DNA of 64,000 nucleotides from Aquabacterium humicola (GTDB lineage Bacteria > Pseudomonadota > Gammaproteobacteria > Burkholderiales > Burkholderiaceae_C). Position 1 is the stretch's first letter; each line of letters starts with the position of its first letter. The translations under genes were made by a program, and so were the position numbers. The stretch covers positions 124,001-188,000 of the forward strand of contig NZ_JARGNB010000006.1 of NCBI RefSeq assembly GCF_030167915.1, written 5' to 3'. Below, in pieces: positions 41,417-52,036 of the stretch. The notes under the pieces are model-generated. The model was not told where the DNA came from. It made no database searches and saw only the letters and a list, made by a program, of their open reading frames with translations.

Positions 41417-42475
41417 TCATCGTTCAGTCGCCTGCCCGGCAATCACACGCACGCGAGGGCACGAGCCCGTCGAGTGCACATCGAACCTCACCGGCAGGAA
41501 CTGCTCGATCACGCCGATGTTGGTCGTGGCATGGTCGGTCATCGTGGTGCAGGTGAATGACGCCTCGCCGCCTCGTGCCGCGACGGCGAGTGCCAGCGGC
41601 AACATCCACTGGTCCGCCAGGTGCTGCCCCAGAGCACCCTCGCTCGCCTGGTGCGCCCTGATCTCCTGGACCAAGGCATCCGCCACCTGCTCGGCACGCA
41701 CGCCCTTCTCGCCGAAACTCGTCACGACCTCGTTCACATGCGCATAGCCCAGCGTGGCCATCAGCGCGTTGCCCGGGCCTTCGTTCTGCCGCACGGCCGG
41801 CGTGCGCAGCTGCTCACCCGACCAGCCCAGTGCGCGCGACAGCGCCGCGAGTTCGCGCGCCGCCACGGCGCTCGGCAAGGCCGGCGCGAAACACTCTGCG
41901 TACGCCTCCTGCAGCGGTCCGCGATCGGTCAGGTCGAAGGGTTGCAGGCCCGCGGCGGCCGGATGCACCACGGCTGAAATCTCGCCGCCGCCCGCCGGAT
42001 AGAAGCCCAGCCGGCGCAGGTCCAGGTCGAGACCCACACCGAGGCGCCGCAGCAGCGGTGCGAAGCTGCGTTCGAGGAAGTGAAACGGCGGCGCCATCGG
42101 GTTGTGCGTGCCGCCGCTGAGCGACACGCGGCTGGGCTCGGCACCGAGCATCAGGGCCGGCAGCACCGTCTGCAGCACCAGCGTGCAACTGCCCGCGGTG
42201 CCGACATTGAAGGCGTAGTCGCCGGCGCGCACGGCGCCAGGCTCGAAGACCACGGTCTGCGAGCCGAGCTCCGCCCCCTCCACCCGCGCGCCGCAGACGG
42301 CCACGGCCGCCTGCACGCAGGTCAGGTGCTGGCGCATCAAGCCCGGCTTCGCACGCTTCGCACGGATGCGTTGGATCAGCATGGGCTGGCCGGTGCACAT
42401 CGACAGGGCCAGGCCCGTGCGCAGGATCTGGCCACCACCTTCACCGGTCGAGCCATCAAGTTCGATCACGTTCAT
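41417..42475 (-). CDS. rtcA: RNA 3'-terminal phosphate cyclase
   Basis: Converts RNA 3'-phosphate ends to 2',3'-cyclic phosphate with ATP, preparing ends for RtcB. 352 residues: N-terminal ELDGSTGEGGGQILRTGLAL, RAKRAKPGLMRQHL, the glycine-rich FYPAGGGEI, and the catalytic-His motif GQHLADQ near the C terminus. It overlaps rlaP by 20 nt and is the last gene of the RNA repair unit. Confidence 0.95.
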   Translation of the reverse strand: MNVIELDGSTGEGGGQILRTGLALSMCTGQPMLIQRIRAKRAKPGLMRQHLTCVQAAVAVCGARVEGAELGSQTVVFEPGAVRAGDYAFNVGTAGSCTLVLQTVLPALMLGAEPSRVSLSGGTHNPMAPPFHFLERSFAPLLRRLGVGLDLDLRRLGFYPAGGGEISAVVHPAAAGLQPFDLTDRGPLQEAYAECFAPALPSAVAARELAALSRALGWSGEQLRTPAVRQNEGPGNALMATLGYAHVNEVVTSFGEKGVRAEQVADALVQEIRAHQASEGALGQHLADQWMLPLALAVAARGGEASFTCTTMTDHATTNIGVIEQFLPVRFDVHSTGSCPRVRVIAGQATER

Positions 42476-43289
42476 TCTTCTCTCGTTCTTCCCTCAGGAC
42501 CGTCTCGGCCAGGAAGGCGTCCAGCATCGTGGTGTCAGCGCGAGACGGATCCACGACCACCTGGGTCGCGGCCGTAGCGAGCTCGCTCTCGATGAAGGCG
42601 TGGATGGCGGTCCACCGAGGACTCGTGGCCGCTTCACCGGCACGCATCTTCACTTCGAGCAGTCGGTTGATCTCGTCCAGCAGTGCGTGGTCGTCGAGCG
42701 TGGCCTGCGCCAACGCCGCAAAGCGCATCGGCGGCACACCTCGCCCGTCGCGAATCCACCGGGCGGCCAGCAACGGCCGCAGCACGTACAGGTATTTCTT
42801 GTAGCGAACCTCTTCCCCACGCAGATGCTCGCGGAAGTTCTTCTTCGCCATCGACACGTAGTGGTGGTAGCCGCGCACGGCCGAGAAGCCGTCTTTCGCC
42901 AGCACACGCAGGCGCGCTGCCGCGTCGACCTCTTCGCGGTAGATGATCGGCGAGCGCAACCATTCGAGCAGCGTCGGGTTCGACTGGCGCAGCAACAGCA
43001 GCGTCTTGCGCAGGTCCCAGCCGTTCACGTCGAGGTCGCCGCTGATCGGCTGCTCGATCACGTCGCGCCCCGGCTCGACAGTCAGGTACCACGACAGGCG
43101 GTTCACATAGATGAAGCGCACGTCGTAGTCGCTGTCGGGCGACGCGAAACCCCAGCCGCGACTGCCGGACTCGCAGGCGAACAGCACCTTCACATCGTTA
43201 GCGGCCTCGATCTGCCGCAGACAGTCGAGGATCCGATCGCGCATCGCCGGGTCGATCGGGTGCGCACTGATCAGTGTTTCGTTCTTCAT
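42456..43289 (-). CDS. rlaP: RNA-repair-associated polymerase-beta-fold nucleotidyltransferase
   Basis: A 277-residue protein of the RlaP (RNA ligase-associated) family. The nucleotidyltransferase active site is GSRGWGFASPDSDYDVRF, with the GS motif and the DxD pair, followed by FIYVNRLSWYL. Helical C-terminal segments (AKKNFREHLRGEEVRYKKYLY) follow. Members travel with rtcB or other RNA ligases and are predicted to modify or rebuild RNA ends. The ATG at 43289 (MKNETLISAHP) is 57 bp downstream of the rtcB stop; an upstream in-frame start is less likely. Confidence 0.85.
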   Translation of the reverse strand: MKNETLISAHPIDPAMRDRILDCLRQIEAANDVKVLFACESGSRGWGFASPDSDYDVRFIYVNRLSWYLTVEPGRDVIEQPISGDLDVNGWDLRKTLLLLRQSNPTLLEWLRSPIIYREEVDAAARLRVLAKDGFSAVRGYHHYVSMAKKNFREHLRGEEVRYKKYLYVLRPLLAARWIRDGRGVPPMRFAALAQATLDDHALLDEINRLLEVKMRAGEAATSPRWTAIHAFIESELATAATQVVVDPSRADTTMLDAFLAETVLREEREKNERDRT

Positions 43290-43346
43290 GACTCTCTCCC
43301 CATCCTCTTCAGAAGGGGAGGGAGCCACCCGGCCCGACCTCCCCAA

Positions 43347-44579
43347 CTAGCCCTTCACACACACCACCTGCTTCAAGGTGTGGACGACTTCCACCAGGTC
43401 CTTCTGCGCCTCCATCACCGCATCGATGTCCTTGTAGGCCATCGGGATCTCGTCGATCACGTCCTTGTCCTTGCGGCACTCGACACCTTCGGTCGCCTTG
43501 ATCTGGTCGTCGATCGTGAACAGCTTCTTCGCCTTGGTGCGGCTCATCACGCGGCCGGCACCGTGGCTGCAGCTCTCGAAGCTCTCGGCGTTTCCCAGGC
43601 CGCGCACGATGTAGCTGCGCGCACCCATGCTGCCGGGAATGATGCCCAGCTGACCACGCTTCGCGCTCACCGCGCCCTTGCGCGTCACGAACACGTCCTC
43701 GCCGAAGTGATGCTCCTGCTGCACATAGTTGTGGTGGCAGTTCACCGCCTCGACATGCGATTCGAACGGCTTCGTGATCACCTTGCGCACCGTCGCGATC
43801 AGGTTGCTCATCATCACCTCGCGGTTGCGCGCCGCGAACTTCTGCGCCCAGCCCACGCCGCGCACGTAGTCGCCGAAGTACTGCGCACCTTCCTCGAAGT
43901 ACGCCAGGTCCTGGTCCGGCAGGTTGCGTTGGTGCAGTTCGGCGTCCTTCTTCGCCAGTTCGATGAAGTGCGTGCCGATCGCATTGCCCACGCCGCGCGA
44001 ACCCGAGTGAAGCATGAACCACACGAAACCGTCCTCGTCGAGGCAGACCTCGATGAAGTGGTTGCCGGTGCCCAGCGTTCCCAGGTGCTTGCGGTTGTTC
44101 GTGTTCTTGAGGCGCGGGTGCAGCTCGCACAGCGCGTCGAACTCGTCCGCCAGCATCGCCCAGACCTGGTCCACCGCCTCGGGCGGGTTCTCCCAGCTGC
44201 CCTGGTCGCGGCCACGGTTGCGCGGTGACGAGCCGTGCGGCACGGCACGCTCGATCGCGGCACGCAGCGGCGCCAGGTTGTCGGGCAGGTCGTTCGCGTG
44301 CAGCGTGGTCTTGCAAGCCATCATGCCGCAGCCGATGTCCACGCCGACGGCGGCCGGGATGATCGCGCGCAGGGTCGGGATCACCGAACCCACGGTCGCA
44401 CCGATGCCCAGGTGCACGTCGGGCATCGCGGCGATGTGCTTGAACACGATGGGCAGGCGCGCCGCGTTGGCGAGCTGCTGCTTCGCTTCGTCTTCCACGG
44501 GCACGCCGCGCGTCCACATCTTGATGGGCACGCCGCCTTCGGGTTGCTCGGTGTAGTAGTTCTGTTCCATGTTCATCAT
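43347..44579 (-). CDS. rtcB: RNA-splicing ligase RtcB
   Basis: GTP- and Mn-dependent ligase that joins RNA 2',3'-cyclic phosphate (or 3'-phosphate) to 5'-OH ends. 410 residues of the shorter bacterial type. Metal-binding DIGCGMMA (Asp81, Cys84), GTGNHFIEV, LHSGSRGVGN, and the guanylated-His motif SCSHGAGRVMSR near 340 are all present, so it should be active. Its ATG is 20 nt downstream of the fourth Y-RNA-like element; the Shine-Dalgarno is weak. Confidence 0.96.
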   Translation of the reverse strand: MMNMEQNYYTEQPEGGVPIKMWTRGVPVEDEAKQQLANAARLPIVFKHIAAMPDVHLGIGATVGSVIPTLRAIIPAAVGVDIGCGMMACKTTLHANDLPDNLAPLRAAIERAVPHGSSPRNRGRDQGSWENPPEAVDQVWAMLADEFDALCELHPRLKNTNNRKHLGTLGTGNHFIEVCLDEDGFVWFMLHSGSRGVGNAIGTHFIELAKKDAELHQRNLPDQDLAYFEEGAQYFGDYVRGVGWAQKFAARNREVMMSNLIATVRKVITKPFESHVEAVNCHHNYVQQEHHFGEDVFVTRKGAVSAKRGQLGIIPGSMGARSYIVRGLGNAESFESCSHGAGRVMSRTKAKKLFTIDDQIKATEGVECRKDKDVIDEIPMAYKDIDAVMEAQKDLVEVVHTLKQVVCVKG

Positions 44580-44599
44580 CTACCGCAAAAATGGTGCCT

Positions 44600-44730
44600 C
44601 GTTGCGACAAGGGTTGGTGAAACGTCGTGCTCTACCGGACTGAGCTACGGCCCCCCTGATGTGAGACCGGCGGGATTCGAACCCGCGACCACGAGATTAA
44701 GAGTCTGTAGTTCCACCTGCATTCGCAACG
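44600..44730 (-). ncRNA. Y-RNA-like element 4, carrying a permuted tRNA-Lys
   Basis: Outer stem CGTTGCGA/TCGCAACG, internal loop ATGCA opposite AACCCTTG, inner stem GGTGGAAC/GTTTCACC, then TACA. The loop holds a tRNA in swapped order. The 3' half comes first (44705-44662: anticodon loop CTCTTAA, T arm GCGGG/CCCGC, acceptor strand CGGTCTC). A short linker follows, then the 5' half (44654-44625: acceptor GGGGCCG, D arm GCTC/GAGC, ending ACGA). Joining CGA to GA restores a perfect 5-bp anticodon stem CGAGA/TCTCG. YrlA-type Y RNAs are known to carry tRNA-like modules. Confidence 0.8.
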
Positions 44731-44744
44731 CGACATCAATACAA

Positions 44745-44844
44745 ACGCGACAAGGGACGGCAAGACGTCTTGCCATTGCCGGTTTCCCGGCAACGGGGGA
44801 TCGAACCCCCATGGCTCCCGATGTAGTCCTGCCTGCATTCGCGT
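44745..44844 (-). ncRNA. Y-RNA-like element 3, with T-arm and acceptor module
   Basis: Outer stem ACGCGA/TCGCGT, internal loop ATGCA opposite GTCCCTTG, inner stem GGCAGGAC/GTCTTGCC, then TACA. The insert has a perfect T arm GGGGG-TTCGATC-CCCCC and an acceptor-like stem TTGCCGG/CCGGCAA capped by a GAAA tetraloop, plus a D-like stem GGC/GCC. It has no anticodon arm. This is a permuted tRNA mimic. Confidence 0.75.
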
Positions 44845-44870
44845 CAAAACCTCAATTCCTTCGAATGCTC

Positions 44871-44946
44871 TCGAGTGGCGACTAGAAATCCGGTGAAACC
44901 TTGAGCGTGGACAACGATGTAGTTCCACCAGGCATTCGCCACTCGA
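44871..44946 (-). ncRNA. Y-RNA-like element 2, minimal form
   Basis: Outer stem TCGAGTGGCGA/TCGCCACTCGA (11 bp, perfect), internal loop ATGCCT opposite GGATTTCTAG, inner stem GGTGGAAC/GTTTCACC identical to element 4, then TACA and a short terminal loop of about 18 nt. It carries no tRNA-like module and so shows the bare Ro60-binding-type stem. Confidence 0.72.
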
Positions 44947-44965
44947 CAACATTCACGGTCAGGTC

Positions 44966-45122: not shown

Positions 45123-46697
45123 CTACTGTGCGGCCAGCGAGACCTTCTCGATCTCGCCCACCCAGTGTTCCGGGCCCGTCTTGCCCTCGGCGAACGCGGC
45201 CATCACCGAGAACACCGCATCCGAGAAGCCGCCGACATTCATGATGTCGTGCCGCTCCGCCGCCTGCGTCGTGCCGTGCGGCTGGACGTCGATGCACACG
45301 AGCCGTGCTTGCGGGTTGCGCTGCTTCAGCACTTCCCACTCGCGCATCGTCTGCGTCGCACCGCGCCGCGTGGCATCGACCCACGACTCGTTGTCCGAGA
45401 CGAGGATCACCAGTTCCACCTTCGCACGCTCCTTGTTGAGCAAGGCCAGCGGCGCGCTGCAGTTGGTGCCACCGCCTCCGATGGCGGCCAAGGCTTGCGC
45501 ATTGGTCATCACCGAGTCGCGGGTGTTCAACGACAGCTTCACCACGTCCTGCTCGAACGGCAGAACACGCGCCGCCGGGTTCTTGCGCAACACCGCTGCC
45601 GAGACCAGGGCCGCGACATCGATGCAACGCACGCTCGACGTTGCCGAGCCGCGGTGACCCGTCACTGACGAGCTCATCGAGCCCGACACGTCGGGGCACA
45701 CCACCACACGGCCATCGAACGCCGGCACGTTGGCCAGCGCCGCCTCCATCGCGTCCTGCAGCGCATCACGAACCACCGCCGGCACACCTTCTCCCGTCGC
45801 CTTGAAGGCCGACATCAGCTGGTACGGCAGCACGCGCGCGTGAACCACAGCCTTCGGGTCCCGCAGCTTGGCTGCGATCGCCTCGGCCATGCCGTCAAGC
45901 TCGAACACGCCGTGACGCGCGAAGGTGTTCAGGTTCTGGCGCACCATCTGCCACGAACCCGCACGCGCGATCTGCGCCCACTTCGCGGTGCTCAGCGCCA
46001 GCGCGGTCAGCATCTGGAACGGAACGTCCGGCACCTCGCACACCGCGCCATCGGCCACGGCCCGCTTGAAGCGCTCGAAAGCTTGCGTGATGGGCGGCAG
46101 CGCCGTCTCATCGACGGCCTTGCCGATCAACCACGCGAACCACGCAGCGCGCCAGGCCTCTGCCGGCTTCGGGTGAACCATCTTCACCACGTCGGCCAGC
46201 GACGGCGTGTTGCCCACCGCGGCGTTCAACAGCTGCTTCTCGCTGGCGGTCAGCAGCCAGTGCTGAACGAGCTTCTTCGGACGCGAACCCAGCGACCTGC
46301 GGCCCACCGAGCCACTGCGCACGATCTGCACGAAGTTGCGCAGCATCTTGCCGTTGTCGACCACGCGGCCGAACACCTGGCCCAGCAGTGCCACGTCGCG
46401 CACGGCAAGCGTGGCGGCCAGCACGGCCGGCATGTCCTTCATGTGGCCGGCCTGGCGTGCGTAGATGGCGGTCTTGGCCACGAACGCTGCGTCCACGGTT
46501 TGCGCCAGGGCACGCACCGTGTCCAGCTGCGAGTCCGCGCTCGCATAGAAGGTCTGGTTCAGGCAGCCGGTCGCAGCGAGCTGCGCCAACTGATGGCGCG
46601 CGCTCAGGGCATAGGCCGGCGCCTGCTCGTGGTTGCGAGCGGTGGCATCCGGCAGCAGCACGCCCTTGAGCGTCTTGAAGAGTTGGGTGTTGACCAT
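45123..46697 (-). CDS. rsr: TROVE-domain Ro60 ortholog (Rsr)
   Basis: 524 residues. An N-terminal HEAT-like TROVE ring (LKTLKGVLLPDATARN, AVVHARVLPYQLMSAF, RDALQDAMEAAL) binds Y RNAs and misfolded RNA ends. A C-terminal von Willebrand A domain follows, with the metal-dependent adhesion motif PDVSGSMSSS, plus GGGTNCSAPL and VSDNESW. Rsr works with Y RNA and PNPase in RNA quality control. The ATG at 46697 has a strong GAGGAG Shine-Dalgarno; an upstream ATG in frame is less well placed. It lies 5' of the Y-RNA-like elements, as in Salmonella. Confidence 0.95.
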   Translation of the reverse strand: MVNTQLFKTLKGVLLPDATARNHEQAPAYALSARHQLAQLAATGCLNQTFYASADSQLDTVRALAQTVDAAFVAKTAIYARQAGHMKDMPAVLAATLAVRDVALLGQVFGRVVDNGKMLRNFVQIVRSGSVGRRSLGSRPKKLVQHWLLTASEKQLLNAAVGNTPSLADVVKMVHPKPAEAWRAAWFAWLIGKAVDETALPPITQAFERFKRAVADGAVCEVPDVPFQMLTALALSTAKWAQIARAGSWQMVRQNLNTFARHGVFELDGMAEAIAAKLRDPKAVVHARVLPYQLMSAFKATGEGVPAVVRDALQDAMEAALANVPAFDGRVVVCPDVSGSMSSSVTGHRGSATSSVRCIDVAALVSAAVLRKNPAARVLPFEQDVVKLSLNTRDSVMTNAQALAAIGGGGTNCSAPLALLNKERAKVELVILVSDNESWVDATRRGATQTMREWEVLKQRNPQARLVCIDVQPHGTTQAAERHDIMNVGGFSDAVFSVMAAFAEGKTGPEHWVGEIEKVSLAAQ

Positions 46698-46747
46698 GAG
46701 TGTGTTCTCCTCTCTGTGCATTCAACTTGTATGGCGATGCGCGCGGC

Positions 46748-47372: not shown

Positions 47373-47448
47373 TGGCGGGGGTGACAGGATTCGAACCTGT
47401 GTGCACCGGGTCAAAGCCGGCTGTCTGAGGCCACTCGACTACACCCCG
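47373..47448 (-). tRNA. tRNA-Gln(TTG)
   Basis: Anticodon loop CTTTGAC, T arm ACAGG/CCTGT, discriminator G, CCA encoded. The first acceptor pair is a C-C mismatch (CGGGGTG/CACCCCC). Last tRNA of the array, 52 bp upstream of the HNH gene and separated from the others by a broken SEC-C gene. Confidence 0.9.
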
Positions 47449-47487
47449 TCGTCCGTTCAACGCTGATAGTGATCGCGGTTCACGCCG

Positions 47488-47696
47488 TCAAAAGCGACCG
47501 CTGCGCATGCAGCAACGCTTGAAACGACTTCGCGGAGCCGCATGGGCACGGATCGTTGCGCCCGAGCTTCTCGATGAGTTCCTTCGCGCCGCCGACGATG
47601 CGGTCACCGCGCTTCACACCCGTCTCGGACGGGAAGCCTTTGCGCCGTTTGCTCGTAGTCGTGAAAGCTCACGTCGTCTTCATGGATCGGTTTCAT
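47488..47696 (-). pseudogene. SEC-C motif small protein, frameshifted
   Basis: Reading from a well-placed ATG (Shine-Dalgarno GGGAGGT) gives [15 protein letters not shown]. Then a frame change is needed to continue [19 protein letters not shown] and [17 protein letters not shown], the metal-binding SEC-C signature. A second shift is needed for the final [11 protein letters not shown]. Two frameshifts in about 200 bp suggest decay rather than error, but sequencing error cannot be excluded. Similar small SEC-C proteins, as I recall them, end in CPCGSGKxFKxCC. It fills the gap between tRNA-Val and tRNA-Gln. Confidence 0.72.
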
Positions 47697-47739
47697 GGCA
47701 TACCTCCCGGGTGGTTGATGTTCTCGGCTCTGCTGTAGT

Positions 47740-47814
47740 TGGTGGTCCGGGGTGGGCACGATCCACCGGCCTTCGCCTTGTGAGGGCGCTGCTCTGCCGC
47801 TGAGCTACCGGACT
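47740..47814 (-). tRNA. tRNA-Val(CAC), atypical
   Basis: Anticodon loop CTCACAA; CCA encoded. The T loop reads ATCGTGC instead of TTCNANN (position 54 is A), the first acceptor pair is A-C and the top anticodon-stem pair is G-A. It may be a degenerating or specialised tRNA. Confidence 0.8.
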
Positions 47815-47820
47815 GCTGCC

Positions 47821-47905
47821 TGGTCCCCTCGGTCCGAGTCGAACGGACATGCCCTGCGGCTCCGGTTTCTGAGACCGGTGCGTCTGCCTATTCCGCCACG
47901 AGGGG
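47821..47905 (-). tRNA. tRNA-Leu(CAG)
   Basis: 85-nt type II tRNA: acceptor CCCCTCG/CGAGGGG, anticodon loop CTCAGAA in a perfect stem CCGGT/ACCGG, long variable arm, T arm GTCCG/CGGAC, CCA encoded. Confidence 0.92.
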
Positions 47906-47914
47906 GTTGATGGG

Positions 47915-47990
47915 TGGTGCGTCGCCACGGGCTTGAACCCTGACCATCCGGGGTAAGAGCCCGGTACTCTGCCGCTCGAGTTCGCGACGC
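47915..47990 (-). tRNA. tRNA-Lys(CTT)
   Basis: Acceptor GCGTCGC/GCGACGC, anticodon loop CTCTTAC in stem CCGGG/CCCGG, CCA encoded. The T stem has an internal G-G mismatch (CAGGG/CCGTG). It has the same anticodon as the permuted tRNA at 44600. Confidence 0.9.
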
Positions 47991-48011
47991 GTTGAAAGGC
48001 ATGCGCTTGGG

Positions 48012-48082
48012 GGTGACCAGCCGGAGTCGAACCGGCACCAGCGGGTCCACAACCCACGGCTCTGCCATTGAGCTACGGCCAC
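48012..48082 (-). tRNA. tRNA-His(GTG)
   Basis: Acceptor GTGGCCG/TGGTCAC with two G-U pairs, anticodon loop TTGTGGA, T arm GCCGG/CCGGC, discriminator C as usual for His. The 3' end reads CCC rather than CCA, and the -1 position is T rather than G. Confidence 0.88.
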
Positions 48083-48127
48083 ACCCAAACGCACGACATG
48101 CGGTGCACTTCGGTGTCCTGGAACTGA

Positions 48128-48203
48128 TGGTCTCGGCGGCAGGGATCGAACCTGCGACCTGATGCTCCCAAAGCACCCGCGCTTCCAACTGCGCTACACC
48201 GAG
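48128..48203 (-). tRNA. tRNA-Pro(TGG)
   Basis: Acceptor CTCGGTG/CGCCGAG, anticodon loop TTTGGGA in stem GGTGC/GCATC, T arm GCAGG/CCTGC, CCA encoded. Confidence 0.92.
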
Positions 48204-48214
48204 AAGGTTGAGAA

Positions 48215-48292
48215 TGGTCGGCGTGGGCGGATTTGAACCGCCGGTCTTCGCGTCCCGAACGCGACGGATTGGCCAGGCTTTCCCACACGCCG
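48215..48292 (-). tRNA. tRNA-Pro(CGG)
   Basis: Acceptor CGGCGTG/CACGCCG (perfect), anticodon loop TTCGGGA in stem TCGCG/CGCGA, T arm GGCGG/CCGCC, CCA encoded. The D arm is unusually large with a short GGA/TCC stem. Second proline tRNA of the array. Confidence 0.88.
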
Positions 48293-48308
48293 TGGAACTG
48301 GTTGATGA

Positions 48309-48385
48309 TGGTGGCCACAGTTGGACTCGAACCAACGACTCCCGCCTTATCAAGACGGTGCTCTACCGGGCTGAGCTATGCGACC
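48309..48385 (-). tRNA. tRNA-Ile(GAT)
   Basis: Acceptor GGTCGCA/TGTGGCC with two G-U pairs, anticodon loop TTGATAA, T arm GTTGG/CCAAC, CCA encoded. Confidence 0.92.
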
Positions 48386-48393
48386 CCGAATGG

Positions 48394-48469
48394 TGGCTCC
48401 CCGAGACGGCCTCGAACCGCCGCGCTTCCGGTTAACAGCCGGACGCTCTACCCACTGAGCTATCGGGGA
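48394..48469 (-). tRNA. tRNA-Asn(GTT)
   Basis: Acceptor TCCCCGA/TCGGGGA, anticodon loop CTGTTAA in stem TCCGG/CCGGA, T arm GGCGG/CCGTC with one G-U pair, discriminator G, CCA encoded. Confidence 0.93.
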
Positions 48470-48503
48470 AAAGGTGCGGCAACATGCTGCCGCAGGTGCA
48501 AGA

Positions 48504-48590
48504 TGGACTCGACGGACGGATTCGAACCGACGCGGGCTGGACGCCGACAGTTTTGCAGACTGCGGCCTTCGACCACTTGGCTACGTCGAG
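48504..48590 (-). tRNA. tRNA-Cys(GCA) with long variable arm
   Basis: 87 nt: acceptor CTCGACG/CGTCGAG, anticodon loop CTGCAAA in stem GCAGT/ACTGT, T loop TTCGAAT, discriminator T, CCA encoded. The variable region is 15 nt (CGGCGTCCAGCCCGC), long enough for a GGC/GCC stem, unlike a normal class I tRNA-Cys. One T-stem pair is mismatched. Confidence 0.85.
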
Positions 48591-48601
48591 TGAGGAAACT
48601 G

Positions 48602-48677
48602 TGGCGGGGGTGCACGGACTCGAACCGCGTACCTTCGGTTTTGGAGACCGACGCTCTGCCTGTGGAGCTTCACCCCC
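48602..48677 (-). tRNA. tRNA-Trp(CCA)
   Basis: Acceptor GGGGGTG/CACCCCC, anticodon loop CTCCAAA in stem TCGGT/ACCGA, T arm CGCGG/CCGTG (one G-U pair), discriminator G, CCA encoded. Confidence 0.93.
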
Positions 48678-48719
48678 TCTTTGACACGCTGAGCGAACAC
48701 GGTTGCTACGTATTCGGTC

Positions 48720-48796
48720 TGGAGCCTCGTGCACGATTCGAACGTGCGACCTCCGATTTCGTAGACCGGCGCTCTGGTCCGCTGAGCTAACGAGGC
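48720..48796 (-). tRNA. tRNA-Arg(ACG)
   Basis: Acceptor GCCTCGT/ACGAGGC (perfect), anticodon loop CTACGAA (A34 to be deaminated to inosine by TadA), T arm GCACG/CGTGC, discriminator T, CCA encoded. Confidence 0.93.
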
Positions 48797-48814
48797 GTGT
48801 GATGGTGTAAGACC

Positions 48815-48890
48815 TGGCGCCCCGTGCGGGAGTCGAACCCGCGGCTTCCGGCTAGACAGGCCGGCACTCTGGCCACTGAGTTAACGGAGC
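48815..48890 (-). tRNA. tRNA-Asp(GTC)
   Basis: Acceptor GCTCCGT/ACGGGGC with one G-U pair, anticodon loop CTGTCTA in stem CCGGC/GCCGG, T arm GCGGG/CCCGC, discriminator G, CCA encoded. Confidence 0.93.
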
Positions 48891-48930
48891 ATGCGAGAAC
48901 CGGCGGCCGGCCGGGTCGGGTGTTGATGAG

Positions 48931-49014
48931 TGGTGGGCGCTGATGGATTCGAACCACCGTGTCCTTGGAAACTGCTTTACAGGCAGCCGCATTCGACCTC
49001 TCTGCCAAACGCCC
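48931..49014 (-). tRNA. tRNA-Tyr(GTA)
   Basis: 84-nt type II tRNA: acceptor GGGCGTT/AGCGCCC, anticodon loop CTGTAAA, long variable arm, T arm GGTGG/CCATC, CCA encoded. Confidence 0.92.
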
Positions 49015-49021
49015 GGCGAAC

Positions 49022-49097
49022 TGGTGGAGATGGCCGGCTTCGAACCGACGACCCTCTGCTTGCAAAGCAGGCGCTCTGCCATCTGAGCTACACCCCC
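49022..49097 (-). tRNA. tRNA-Ala(TGC)
   Basis: Acceptor GGGGGTG/CATCTCC with two G-U pairs, anticodon loop TTTGCAA with a C-A mismatch at the top of the stem, T arm GTCGG/CCGGC, CCA encoded. The usual alanine G3-U70 identity pair is present. Confidence 0.9.
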
Positions 49098-49152
49098 TGT
49101 GAAGTGTCCGGTGACGGGTTCCGGCGCCGCCCAATCGTTGCGGCCGATTTCC

Positions 49153-49180
49153 GCCCTCGAGGCGCGCTTGCGCCGAGGGC
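49153..49180 (-). other. inter-tRNA hairpin
   Basis: Between tRNA-Ala and tRNA-Glu, GCCCTCG-A-GGCGC-GCTT-GCGCC-GAGGGC forms a stem of about 11-12 bp with one bulge. No T-run follows on either strand, so an RNA-processing or stability element is more likely than a terminator. The surrounding spacer holds nothing else I can name. Confidence 0.6.
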
Positions 49181-49187
49181 TCCTGTC

Positions 49188-49265
49188 TGGCATCCCGTAC
49201 GGGAAGTCGAACCCGTGATCTCCGAGTTGAAAGCCCGGTGTCCTTGACCACTAGACGAACGGGAC
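49188..49265 (-). tRNA. tRNA-Glu(TTC), T loop enlarged
   Basis: Acceptor GTCCCGT/ACGGGAT, anticodon loop CTTTCAA in stem CCGGG/CTCGG, T stem ACGGG/CCCGT, CCA encoded. The T loop has 8 nt (TTCGACTT) instead of 7, an insertion that would disturb the elbow. Confidence 0.85.
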
Positions 49266-49273
49266 ATGGGAAT

Positions 49274-49400
49274 CCATGTCGGCTGTGCCCACACGCGCGG
49301 CGCCCGGTGCACCAGGCGCATCGCTGCACGTGCCCCGCAGCGTGGCCACGCACATGCACGCCGGCGGACCGGCGCTTGTGCACGGACACACCCGACATGG
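49274..49400 (-). ncRNA. multi-hairpin structured spacer fused to the tRNA-Gly 3' end
   Basis: CCATGTCGG at one end pairs with CCGACATGG at the other (9 bp, extendable by TGTG/CACA). The enclosed stretch forms four successive hairpins: GCCGGTCCGCCGGC, GCGTGGCCACGC, CGCTGC...GCAGCG and GCGCC...GGCGC. The stem uses the CCA of tRNA-Gly (49398-49400). It could be a structured RNA or an insertion element; identity unknown. Confidence 0.5.
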
Positions 49401-49473
49401 AGCGGATGACGAGTCTCGAACTCGTGGCCCCGACCCTGGCGAGGTCGTGCTCTGCCAACTGAGCTACATCCGC
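49398..49473 (-). tRNA. tRNA-Gly(GCC)
   Basis: First tRNA of the array. Acceptor GCGGATG/CATCCGC (perfect), anticodon loop TCGCCAG in stem CGACC/GGTCG, T arm ACGAG/CTCGT, discriminator T, CCA encoded. It starts 50 nt downstream of the boxA motif. Confidence 0.93.
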
Positions 49474-51127: not shown

Positions 51128-52036
51128 ATGAGCTCGGGACCCACCGTCGACGGTGTGCTCGTGCAATGGGGCGAGCGGCTCTTCTATCCATCCAACCGGA
51201 TCGTCAAGCCAGCGCCGACCCCGCGCCTGAACACGCTGACGCGACGCAAGGCTGCCGTGATCCGCCGGCGCATCGAAGCGACGGCCACATGGCGAGCGCC
51301 ACAGGTGATGGTCAAAGTGACGGGCGGAGGTCGGGACATGAAGGCGATCGCCGCTCACTTCCGCTACATCAGCAAGAACGGCCGGCTCGCCATCGAAGAC
51401 GATCGAGGTGTCGTGCGAGACGGCAAGGAAGCGCTGCACGACCTGGCCGAGCAGTGGCGCTACGGCGGATCGTTGATCGGCGACGTGGGGCACCGGCGCG
51501 AGGCCTTCAACATCATGCTGTCGATGCCGCACGGCACCGATCCGCGCCTGGTGCAGAAGGCAGCGCGCGAGTTCGCGCAGGCCGAGATGTCGGAGCATCG
51601 CTACGTGATGGTTCTGCACGAGCACCAGGCCAATCCCCACGTGAACCTGAGCGTTCGTGCGGAGTCGCGGACGGGCGAACGCCTGAACCCGCGCAAGACC
51701 GACCTTCACCGTTGGCGAGAGACGTTCGCCGAGAAGCTGCGAGGGTGTGGCGTCGAGGCCGAGGCGACGCGTCAGGCCACGCGCGGCGGGAACCGCAACT
51801 TCGATCCGCTGTGGCGCGTGAAGGCCAGGCAGGACGGTCGCCTGCGCCAGACCGGTGCCGCGACGAAGGCCGGCCAGCGCTACTGGGACAGCCGGGCCGA
51901 CGCCATGAGGGGCTGGGCGCACATCATGAAGGCGTTGGCAGCCTCCGAGAGTCCTGAGGCCCGCAAGCTGGCCGAGCACGTCTCGCGCTTCGTGCGAGGC
52001 GCGCCCTTCGTGCGGGAGGCGGTGCGTCAGCGGTAA
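51128..52036 (+). CDS. relaxase/mobilisation nuclease
   Basis: 302 residues. It has the relaxase three-histidine type motif in the form LHEHQANPHVNLSVRAES, an upstream FRYISKNGRL, and a likely nucleophile Tyr in the N-terminal half. It nicks plasmid or ICE DNA at oriT for conjugative mobilisation. It pairs with mobC upstream and is followed by inverted repeats that could be the oriT. Shorter than plasmid MobA proteins, with no primase domain, typical of integrative mobilisable elements. Confidence 0.8.
   Translation: MSSGPTVDGVLVQWGERLFYPSNRIVKPAPTPRLNTLTRRKAAVIRRRIEATATWRAPQVMVKVTGGGRDMKAIAAHFRYISKNGRLAIEDDRGVVRDGKEALHDLAEQWRYGGSLIGDVGHRREAFNIMLSMPHGTDPRLVQKAAREFAQAEMSEHRYVMVLHEHQANPHVNLSVRAESRTGERLNPRKTDLHRWRETFAEKLRGCGVEAEATRQATRGGNRNFDPLWRVKARQDGRLRQTGAATKAGQRYWDSRADAMRGWAHIMKALAASESPEARKLAEHVSRFVRGAPFVREAVRQR

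What the first reader, a model, noticed from the sequence alone, without database searches (positions are those of the whole stretch)
44600..44730. Circularly permuted tRNA-Lys(CUU) inside a Y-RNA-like element, directly upstream of rtcB
On the minus strand the 3' half of a tRNA (anticodon loop CTCTTAA, variable loop, T arm GCGGG-TTCGAAT-CCCGC, acceptor strand CGGTCTC) precedes the 5' half (acceptor GGGGCCG, TA, D arm GCTC/GAGC, then ACGA). The acceptor strands pair over 7 bp (two G-U) across a short linker. Joining the 5' half at CGA to the 3' half at GA regenerates a perfect 5-bp anticodon stem CGAGA/TCTCG with a Lys CUU loop. The cut sites are flanked by a helix GGTGGAAC/GTTTCACC. Known YrlA RNAs mimic tRNA but are described as lacking an aminoacyl stem; here every arm is intact. 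RtcB, the next gene, is the ligase class that joins spliced tRNA exons in archaea and animals. Whether a mature tRNA is made is inference.
Basis: partly seen in the sequence, partly recalled or inferred. Interest (0 to 1): 0.92.

Follow-up and report, generated by a model that had tools for sequence, protein, structure and literature searches.

The report
Y RNA folded like complete tRNA
Next to an RNA-repair operon, a bacterial Y RNA carries every arm of a transfer RNA in rearranged order, including an anticodon arm whose shape is kept by evolution while its code letters change freely, so it looks like a tRNA mimic and not a hidden tRNA gene.

Summary
At 44598-44729 (-) lies a YrlA Y RNA (Rfam RF02553, 73.7 bits) between rsr and rtcB. 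It holds a complete canonical tRNA in permuted order: 7-bp acceptor sealed by an 8-nt loop, D arm, T arm, 5-nt variable loop, and a split anticodon arm (5 bp, 7-nt loop).

The anticodon arm is no accident. 73 of 95 YrlAs examined, in 71 of 77 loci, have it with tRNA geometry and at least 4 of 5 pairs. Pair 31-39 is standard in all 64 loci tested, with at least 17 changes on an Rsr tree. Rfam's model has no hairpin there.

The tRNA-Lys/RtcB maturation reading is not supported. The anticodon is the fastest-changing part counted (17 kinds, at least 36 changes), with A34 and UCA forms unsuited to decoding. 21 of 73 acceptors are 14-nt hairpins, and 0 of 38 complete copies encode CCA. Cardiobacterium hominis carries the same CUU form but gave no RtcB match.

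Circular permutation of a Salmonella Y RNA relative to tRNA is in print (PMC11472068); the conserved anticodon arm I did not find. Best reading: a sealed tRNA mimic tethered to Ro60. Boldest: bait for anticodon nucleases.

The parts
44598..44729 (-). YrlA Y RNA, whole element
   Evidence: Rfam RF02553, 73.7 bits against gathering score 69; own model R1 142 bits (the window is in the model's seed)
44723..44729 (-). outer Ro-binding stem, 5' strand GTTGCGA
   Evidence: pairs with 44601-44607
44601..44607 (-). outer Ro-binding stem, 3' strand TCGCAAC
44710..44717 (-). inner stem GGTGGAAC
   Evidence: pairs with 44616-44623; 100% paired in 16 sequences
44706..44709 (-). UACA following the inner stem; the tRNA-like 3' half begins directly after it
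   Evidence: 66 of 95 YrlAs have a 19-nt and 7 a 20-nt leader from here to the T arm, the lengths that fit a canonical arm
44687..44705 (-). tRNA positions 30-48: G30 A31, loop CTCTTAA, TC, TCG, variable loop TGGTC
   Evidence: pair 31-39 standard in 64 of 64 loci with at least 17 changes
44670..44686 (-). T arm GCGGG-TTCGAAT-CCCGC
44663..44669 (-). acceptor 3' strand CGGTCTC (66-72)
   Evidence: 5 of 7 pairs change on both sides among 16 sequences
44655..44662 (-). linker ACATCAGG sealing the acceptor; no CCA
44648..44654 (-). acceptor 5' strand GGGGCCG (1-7)
44629..44645 (-). D arm GCTC-AGTCCGGTA-GAGC
44625..44628 (-). A26 and C27 G28 A29, 5' part of the split anticodon stem
   Evidence: C27-A29 pair with 44692-44694 in 16 of 16
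44616..44623 (-). inner stem 3' strand GTTTCACC
45123..46721 (-). Rsr (Ro60 orthologue), presumed partner of the RNA
   Evidence: Pfam vWA_Ro60 2.4e-19 and TROVE 2.4e-07
43347..44579 (-). RtcB RNA ligase
   Evidence: Pfam PF01139, 4.6e-128
42456..43346 (-). RlaP nucleotidyltransferase of RNA repair
   Evidence: Pfam PF10127, 1.2e-96
41417..42475 (-). RtcA RNA 3'-phosphate cyclase
   Evidence: Pfam PF01137, 3.7e-78

Best explanation
It is a YrlA Y RNA whose effector module is a complete, class-I tRNA shape. The two acceptor strands are joined by a loop, so there is no free CCA end. The tRNA backbone is open inside the 5' strand of the anticodon stem (between 29 and 30), where the Ro-binding stem is attached. 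The 2-bp tip hairpin with its 7-nt loop stacks on the 3 bp CGA/UCG to rebuild the anticodon arm.

Mechanism, inferred: Rsr holds the stem and the RNA presents a tRNA look-alike, in effect a tRNA nicked in the anticodon stem, to an enzyme that recognises tRNA shape, such as PNPase, a tRNA-modifying enzyme or the neighbouring repair enzymes. The arm's shape is under selection. Which anticodon it shows matters little or is free to change. It is not matured into a translating tRNA.

Shown here: structure by covariation, conservation, anticodon switching, sealed acceptor, a carrier without detectable RtcB. Inferred: stacking, Rsr binding, effector, function.
For: Rfam YrlA match. Gene order rsr - Y RNAs - rtcB - rlaP - rtcA on one strand. 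Canonical split anticodon arm (at least 4 of 5 pairs) in 73 of 95 YrlAs and 71 of 77 loci. In places found by Rfam, whose model has no hairpin there: 28 of 30 (loci), 3 of 5, 4 of 11 and 2 of 4, all counted. U33 in 71 of 73, A37 in 67 of 73, C or U at 32 in 70 of 73. Pair 31-39 standard in 64 of 64 loci with at least 17 changes at each side. Anticodon changes as freely as a linker: 10, 9, 7 changes at 34-36 against 1-12 at the eight linker positions in the same 26 loci. Acceptor hairpins range from 14 to 47 nt, 14 nt in 21 of 73. Cardiobacterium hominis carries YrlA with this arm but gave no RtcB match.
Against: No expression, structure probing or binding data. The 2-bp tip is not predicted by energy folding, so the arm rests on covariation and geometry. 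22 of 95 YrlAs lack the canonical arm; 16 of these lie in loci that also hold a canonical copy, but six loci have none, so it is dispensable to the family. Of the five genomes I searched in which no rtcB lies within 6 kb, four do have an RtcB elsewhere; the RtcB-less case is one genome. Anticodons seen are more often ones present in the window's genome than column shuffles give (59 against 48.5; loops 33 against 25.2, p 0.006), though distinct loops show no clear excess (8 against 6.3, p 0.24). A bias toward real loops is therefore not excluded.
Confidence: 0.72

Rival explanations
1. Bait or fuse for anticodon nucleases. The arm offers a real anticodon loop to toxins or phage-defence nucleases. 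Cutting it spares real tRNAs, leaves ends that RtcB/RtcA can mend, and may mimic the broken tRNA that switches on RtcR. The anticodon changes quickly because the attacking nucleases change.
For: Fold kept while the anticodon switches: at least 36 changes in 64 loci, close to shuffled labels (mean 40.8, lowest 36 of 500). Setting in an RNA-repair operon. tRNA arrays beside several such operons. Hughes 2020 (PMC7790460, passages read) proposed that the YrlA tRNA-like domain may act as a competitive inhibitor of the nuclease.
Against: Free drift explains the same pattern: anticodon rates are like those of the linker. Salmonella YrlA fragments were not detected when tRNAs were cut (PMC7790460), though the Salmonella-type arm read here looks like a 4-bp, 6-nt-loop version. 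Canonical arms also occur in 6 loci with full 6-kb downstream flanks and no rtcB match in them (L124, L125, L127, L128, L140, L142).
Confidence: 0.18
2. [quoted passage not shown]
For: Perfect cloverleaf on paper. Known algal and archaeal permuted tRNAs run 3' half, intervening sequence, 5' half, and their anticodons are not conserved among organisms (PMC3978253, passages read). rtcB is next door.
Against: Anticodon varies within a genus (Variovorax: CUU, CCA, UCA, AUU), with A34 in 13 of 73 (11 not ACG) and UCA in 3. 21 of 73 acceptors are 14-nt hairpins; 0 of 38 complete copies encode CCA after position 73 (by itself weak, since CCA can be added). No tRNA-splicing endonuclease found in the own genome. 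Same CUU form in C. hominis without an RtcB match. Own genome has ordinary tRNA-Lys(CUU). ARAGORN of 81 joined forms, but also 313 of 405 with the arm shuffled, so that test says little.
Confidence: 0.04
3. Fossil of a tandem tRNA pair, with arm and acceptor merely inherited from tRNA ancestry and decaying.
For: Real tandem tRNAs in the same genome score 31.5-36.6 bits with the YrlA model (loci L002 and L003, read), so such an origin is easy to picture.
Against: Changes on both sides in 5 of 7 acceptor pairs and 64 of 64 paired at 31-39 after many switches point to ongoing selection.
Confidence: 0.04

Closest known systems
YrlA of Salmonella (Rfam RF02553; PDB 6CU1, Wang et al. 2018, known here only through citing papers)
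   Same: Ro stem; T arm before D arm; capped acceptor-like hairpin; reported to superpose on tRNAs with a circular permutation (PMC11472068, passages read); substrate of tRNA enzymes DusA and TruB (PMC8394870, passages read).
   Different: The Salmonella-type copy read here (L159, a phage-labelled unverified record, probably host DNA) has a 16-nt leader, which I read by eye as a 4-bp stem and 6-nt loop (sequence), not the exact 5/7/5 arm with U33 and A37 of the window.
Circularly permuted tRNA genes of algae and Thermofilum pendens (PMC3978253, passages read)
   Same: Order 3' half, intervening sequence, 5' half; acceptor strands joined by a short linker.
   Different: Those have bulge-helix-bulge junctions thought to be cut by a tRNA-splicing endonuclease, and the algal ones yield charged tRNA. 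Here no such endonuclease was found in the own genome, the break is at 29/30 or 28/29, and the acceptor is a 14-nt hairpin in 21 of 73 copies.
tmRNA
   Same: A bacterial RNA with tRNA-like arms (PMC8394870 groups it with Y RNA as tRNA mimics).
   Different: tmRNA has a charged acceptor and no anticodon arm (recalled); here the acceptor is sealed and the anticodon arm present.

Membership tests
YrlA Y RNA (RF02553) | reaches Rfam gathering score | tested here: met
   73.7 against 69 bits
YrlA Y RNA (RF02553) | encoded beside a Ro60/Rsr gene | tested here: met
   Rsr at 45123-46721, vWA_Ro60 2.4e-19
YrlA Y RNA (RF02553) | tRNA-like D and T arms in permuted order | tested here: met
YrlA Y RNA (RF02553) | binds Rsr; tRNA-type modified bases | not testable with these tools
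   needs biochemistry
Circularly permuted tRNA gene | 3' half precedes 5' half, complete cloverleaf after joining | tested here: met
Circularly permuted tRNA gene | conserved amino-acid identity at one locus within a genus | tested here: not met
   Variovorax copies read CUU, CCA, UCA, AUU; 17 anticodons in 64 loci. My own criterion; the review reports non-conservation only between organisms
Circularly permuted tRNA gene | tRNA-splicing endonuclease of known type in the genome | tested here: not met
   PF01974: no match in G000; positive in 4 of 14 control genomes, all archaea
Circularly permuted tRNA gene | bulge-helix-bulge at the junction | tested here: inconclusive
   by eye only: 4-nt UACA on one side, 0-9 nt on the other; no strict motif seen, not searched by program
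Circularly permuted tRNA gene | mature, charged tRNA | not testable with these tools
   needs RNA

The most novel reading that the evidence does not exclude
The anticodon arm of these Y RNAs is a switchable lure. Selection keeps a perfect, cleavable anticodon loop on a Ro60-bound RNA, while the three anticodon letters turn over to track anticodon nucleases from rivals or phage defence. A cut Y RNA is then a rechargeable fuse that RtcB re-seals.
Probability: 0.17. Interest if true: 0.87.

Novelty: new variant of a known kind. Interest (0 to 1): 0.55.

Why it matters
Hughes 2020 left open what Rsr and Y RNAs do in RNA-repair operons. A conserved anticodon arm with constant shape and changing anticodon is a strong clue: whatever binds it seems to read the arm as a tRNA, not as a given codon reader. 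It also makes the decoy idea for Y RNAs directly testable, because the anticodon differs between close species. And it warns that annotation misses this arm: ARAGORN does not report the element in the window and the Rfam model treats the arm as an insertion.

Tried and rejected
Tried without use: ARAGORN on joined halves as a test of tRNA quality (80 of 81 called, but 313 of 405 with shuffled arms too, so not informative; 1 of 81 in genomic order). Energy folding for the arm. Search for a sigma-54 activator motif and sigma-54 sites in the window (no GAFTGA-like motif; four sigma-54-like strings, none upstream of the operon). Phage relatives: Myxococcus phage Mx1, the highest-ranked row (99% of Rsr covered), gave a tRNA but no YrlA match at E 0.01.

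Rejected: alternative hairpin of the 3' half; chance; copying from real host tRNA loops as a general rule (distinct loops 8 of 35, p 0.24; but counting all 73 loops p 0.006, so this is not closed).

Limits. R1 was built from arm-bearing copies, so its 73 of 95 leans toward the arm; the Rfam-found places are the check (37 of 50 in all, 28 of 30 in the family). For one search only the 30 fetched loci (best scores) were looked at, of 46 genomes with matches among 399 searched. Of 246 matches, the 151 under 65 bits were dropped (mostly smaller Y-like elements, some tandem tRNAs). The YrlA model also gives weak matches in 7 of 14 control genomes, none over its cut-off, which is why I used a high score. 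The Rsr tree is a quick one, and two tips (L084, L129) had shifted frames (22 and 20 stops), so their placement is poor. The rate table used 64 loci of one geometry and 61 tRNA positions (D loop and acceptor ends left out). The RtcB absence rests on one genome, C. hominis, whose record is titled chromosome 1, complete sequence. Three key YrlA papers (PMC4201824, PMC6281776, PMC6047535) are not held. Not finding the conserved arm in print rests on searches and 59 of an open-licence library and on passages of a few papers, so it may be in those three.

Full report
What is there. On the minus strand at 44598-44729 the window holds a YrlA Y RNA (RF02553, 73.7 bits) between rsr (45123-46721) and rtcB (43347-44579), followed by rlaP and rtcA. 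The window lies in G000, a 7.39-Mb genome; the loci found with its Rsr are mainly from Burkholderiales. Numbered as a tRNA, the RNA reads: Ro stem, UACA, positions 30-72, an 8-nt loop whose first A would be position 73, positions 1-29, one C, and the other strand of the Ro stem. The Rfam consensus has the same order but no anticodon hairpin: the window carries a 13-nt insertion there.

Is it more than chance? The window and fifteen relatives aligned with the proposed structure pair in 99.6% of cells (shuffled 94.3%, slid partners at most 47.6%); 26 cells show changes on both sides (shuffled 7.0). I built a covariance model and searched the window and 79 Rsr loci. Of 95 matches of at least 65 bits, all were segmented: 73 have the 5-bp, 7-nt, 5-nt arrangement with at least 4 of 5 anticodon pairs, 63 with all 5. 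Shuffling each leader gives 5 pairs in 0.6% and 4 in 5.7%. By locus it is 71 of 77 with a YrlA (80 loci given, 3 with none at that score: L065, L121, L133). The loci without it are L098, L103, L130, L134, L135 and L136. Because the model was trained on arm-bearing copies, I repeated the count on places found by Rfam: 28 of 30, 3 of 5, 4 of 11 and 2 of 4 (all). The arm is thus nearly always present in the best-scoring YrlAs of this bacterial family and patchy further out. Outside Burkholderiales it also occurs in Neisseria, Cardiobacterium, Rhizobium and a Phycisphaerales bin, mostly with 4 of 5 pairs.

What is conserved and what is not. On a tree of Rsr proteins with 64 loci of one geometry, positions 34, 35 and 36 change at least 22, 20 and 20 times, more than any other of the 61 tRNA positions counted (next 38 with 19, 44 with 18). 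Positions 31 and 39 change at least 17 times each, yet every locus keeps a Watson-Crick pair there (C-G 35, A-U 28, G-C 1). In the 73 arms U33 is kept in 71, A37 in 67, and C or U at 32 in 70. The anticodon shows 17 kinds with at least 36 changes, against 40.8 expected for randomly placed labels (lowest 36 of 500), so it carries little trace of descent. In the 26 loci with a 22-nt acceptor hairpin, the anticodon letters change 10, 9 and 7 times, and the eight linker letters 1 to 12 times: the anticodon behaves like free sequence. The acceptor has at least 7 contiguous bp in 45 of 73, is a 14-nt hairpin in 21 (20 with 5 contiguous bp, 17 with a GNRA loop), and reaches 19 contiguous bp in 2.

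Why it is probably not a hidden tRNA gene. Thirty-eight copies have 5 of 5 anticodon and 7 of 7 acceptor pairs, the window among them; none has CCA after position 73. A34, which bacteria use almost only in tRNA-Arg(ACG) (established knowledge), occurs in 13 of 73, 11 of them not ACG; UCA, which would read a stop codon, in 3. Within Variovorax alone the anticodon reads CUU, CCA, UCA or AUU. Cardiobacterium hominis holds the same form with a CUU loop, 5 of 5 anticodon and 7 of 7 acceptor pairs (L127), yet neither the RtcB family model nor the window's RtcB finds a match in its genome, while the YrlA model finds 14 places there, 4 over its cut-off. Of the six genomes given to the other five do have an RtcB. 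The window's genome has no detectable tRNA-splicing endonuclease, a second rtcB elsewhere, and an ordinary tRNA-Lys(CUU). ARAGORN accepts 80 of 81 joined forms, but it also accepts 313 of 405 with scrambled arms, so I give that no weight.

What is known. That a bacterial Y RNA is a circular permutation of tRNA is in print: PMC11472068 (passages read) reports 81 permuted structure pairs of PDB 6CU1 with tRNAs; PMC13355120 (passages) repeats it. PMC8394870 (passages) describes D, T and acceptor mimicry by YrlA, names 6CU1 as the Salmonella RNA, and mentions modification by DusA and TruB. Hughes 2020, PMC7790460 (passages), found no YrlA fragments in Salmonella under tRNA cleavage and suggested that the RNA may inhibit the nuclease. 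The Salmonella-type YrlA read here has a shorter leader, which I read as a 4-bp, 6-nt-loop arm. I did not find the conserved canonical anticodon arm, or its anticodon turnover, in the searches made, but the three main YrlA papers could not be read.

How it most likely works. Shown: the RNA's design by covariation, its conservation, the free anticodon, the sealed acceptor. Inferred: Rsr holds the stem; the complete L-shape, with an opening in the anticodon stem, offers itself to a protein that knows tRNAs by shape. A purely structural role needs only what is shown. The lure model adds that the loop is meant to be cut; it explains why a full U33 loop is kept in an RNA-repair operon, but drift explains the changing letters as well. 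I give the structural mimic 0.72, the lure 0.18 and tRNA maturation 0.04.

Setting. In 67 of 79 relatives a sigma-54 activator motif (GAFTGA type) sits 958-1071 bp upstream of the rsr match on the other strand, as expected for RtcR; 3 have it further away and 9 have none in the stretch held (two of those lack the flank). None was found in the window or in L084. Both instead have tRNA arrays upstream of rsr (17 tRNAs in the window; 23 in L084). Groups of at least 5 tRNAs occur in 8 of the 60 loci scanned, of 79 (L064, L068, L070, L071, L072, L082, L084, L138); four of those with arrays upstream (L064, L070, L071, L072) also have the motif at the usual place, so array and RtcR do not exclude each other. 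A silent tRNA operon and rtcB under one repressor are known in Anabaena (PMC10272220, passages).

Noticed in passing
window 47373-49473 (-): Array of 17 tRNAs directly upstream of the HNH-rsr-YrlA-rtcB-rlaP-rtcA genes. By alignment score per length they are 0.49-0.84 like the nearest same-isotype tRNA among 54 distinct ones fetched from the rest of the genome, and several anticodon loops differ (Asp CTGTCTA against CTGTCAC, Lys CTCTTAC against CTCTTAA, Gly TCGCCAG against TTGCCAA). tRNA groups lie near rsr in 8 of 60 relatives scanned. Possibly a spare tRNA set for times of tRNA damage.
   Followed up: partly
window 44740-44850 (-): A second conserved Y-like RNA just upstream: Ro-stem motifs around a T-arm-like hairpin (GGGGGTTCGATCCCCC) and a capped hairpin, without D arm; it looks like a tRNA top-half minihelix. 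Similar sequences in the 9 relatives chosen for printing.
   Followed up: partly
window 44870-44950 (-): A third, shorter Y-like element (GAATGC...GGTGGAACTACA...GTTTCACC...) without tRNA arms.
   Followed up: no
window upstream of rsr; L084: The RtcR-type activator motif found near rsr in 67 of 79 relatives was not found in the window or L084, both of which carry long tRNA arrays there.
   Followed up: partly
L127, L128 (Cardiobacterium hominis): Two Rsr loci with nine clustered YrlA-model matches (six and three) in a genome without detectable RtcB.
   Followed up: partly
window 51128-52036 (+): Relaxase (MobA/VirD2-like, Pfam PF03432, 2.1e-09) near the tRNA array, suggesting a mobile element next to it.
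   Followed up: no
L148 1432-1557, L149 1702-1836: Two neighbouring YrlAs together match the tRNA model with a long insert (32.5 and 33.1 bits): 5' half of one plus 3' half of the next. A trap for tRNA annotation; ARAGORN also reports a tRNA or tmRNA overlapping or between YrlAs in L126, L128 and L120.
   Followed up: no
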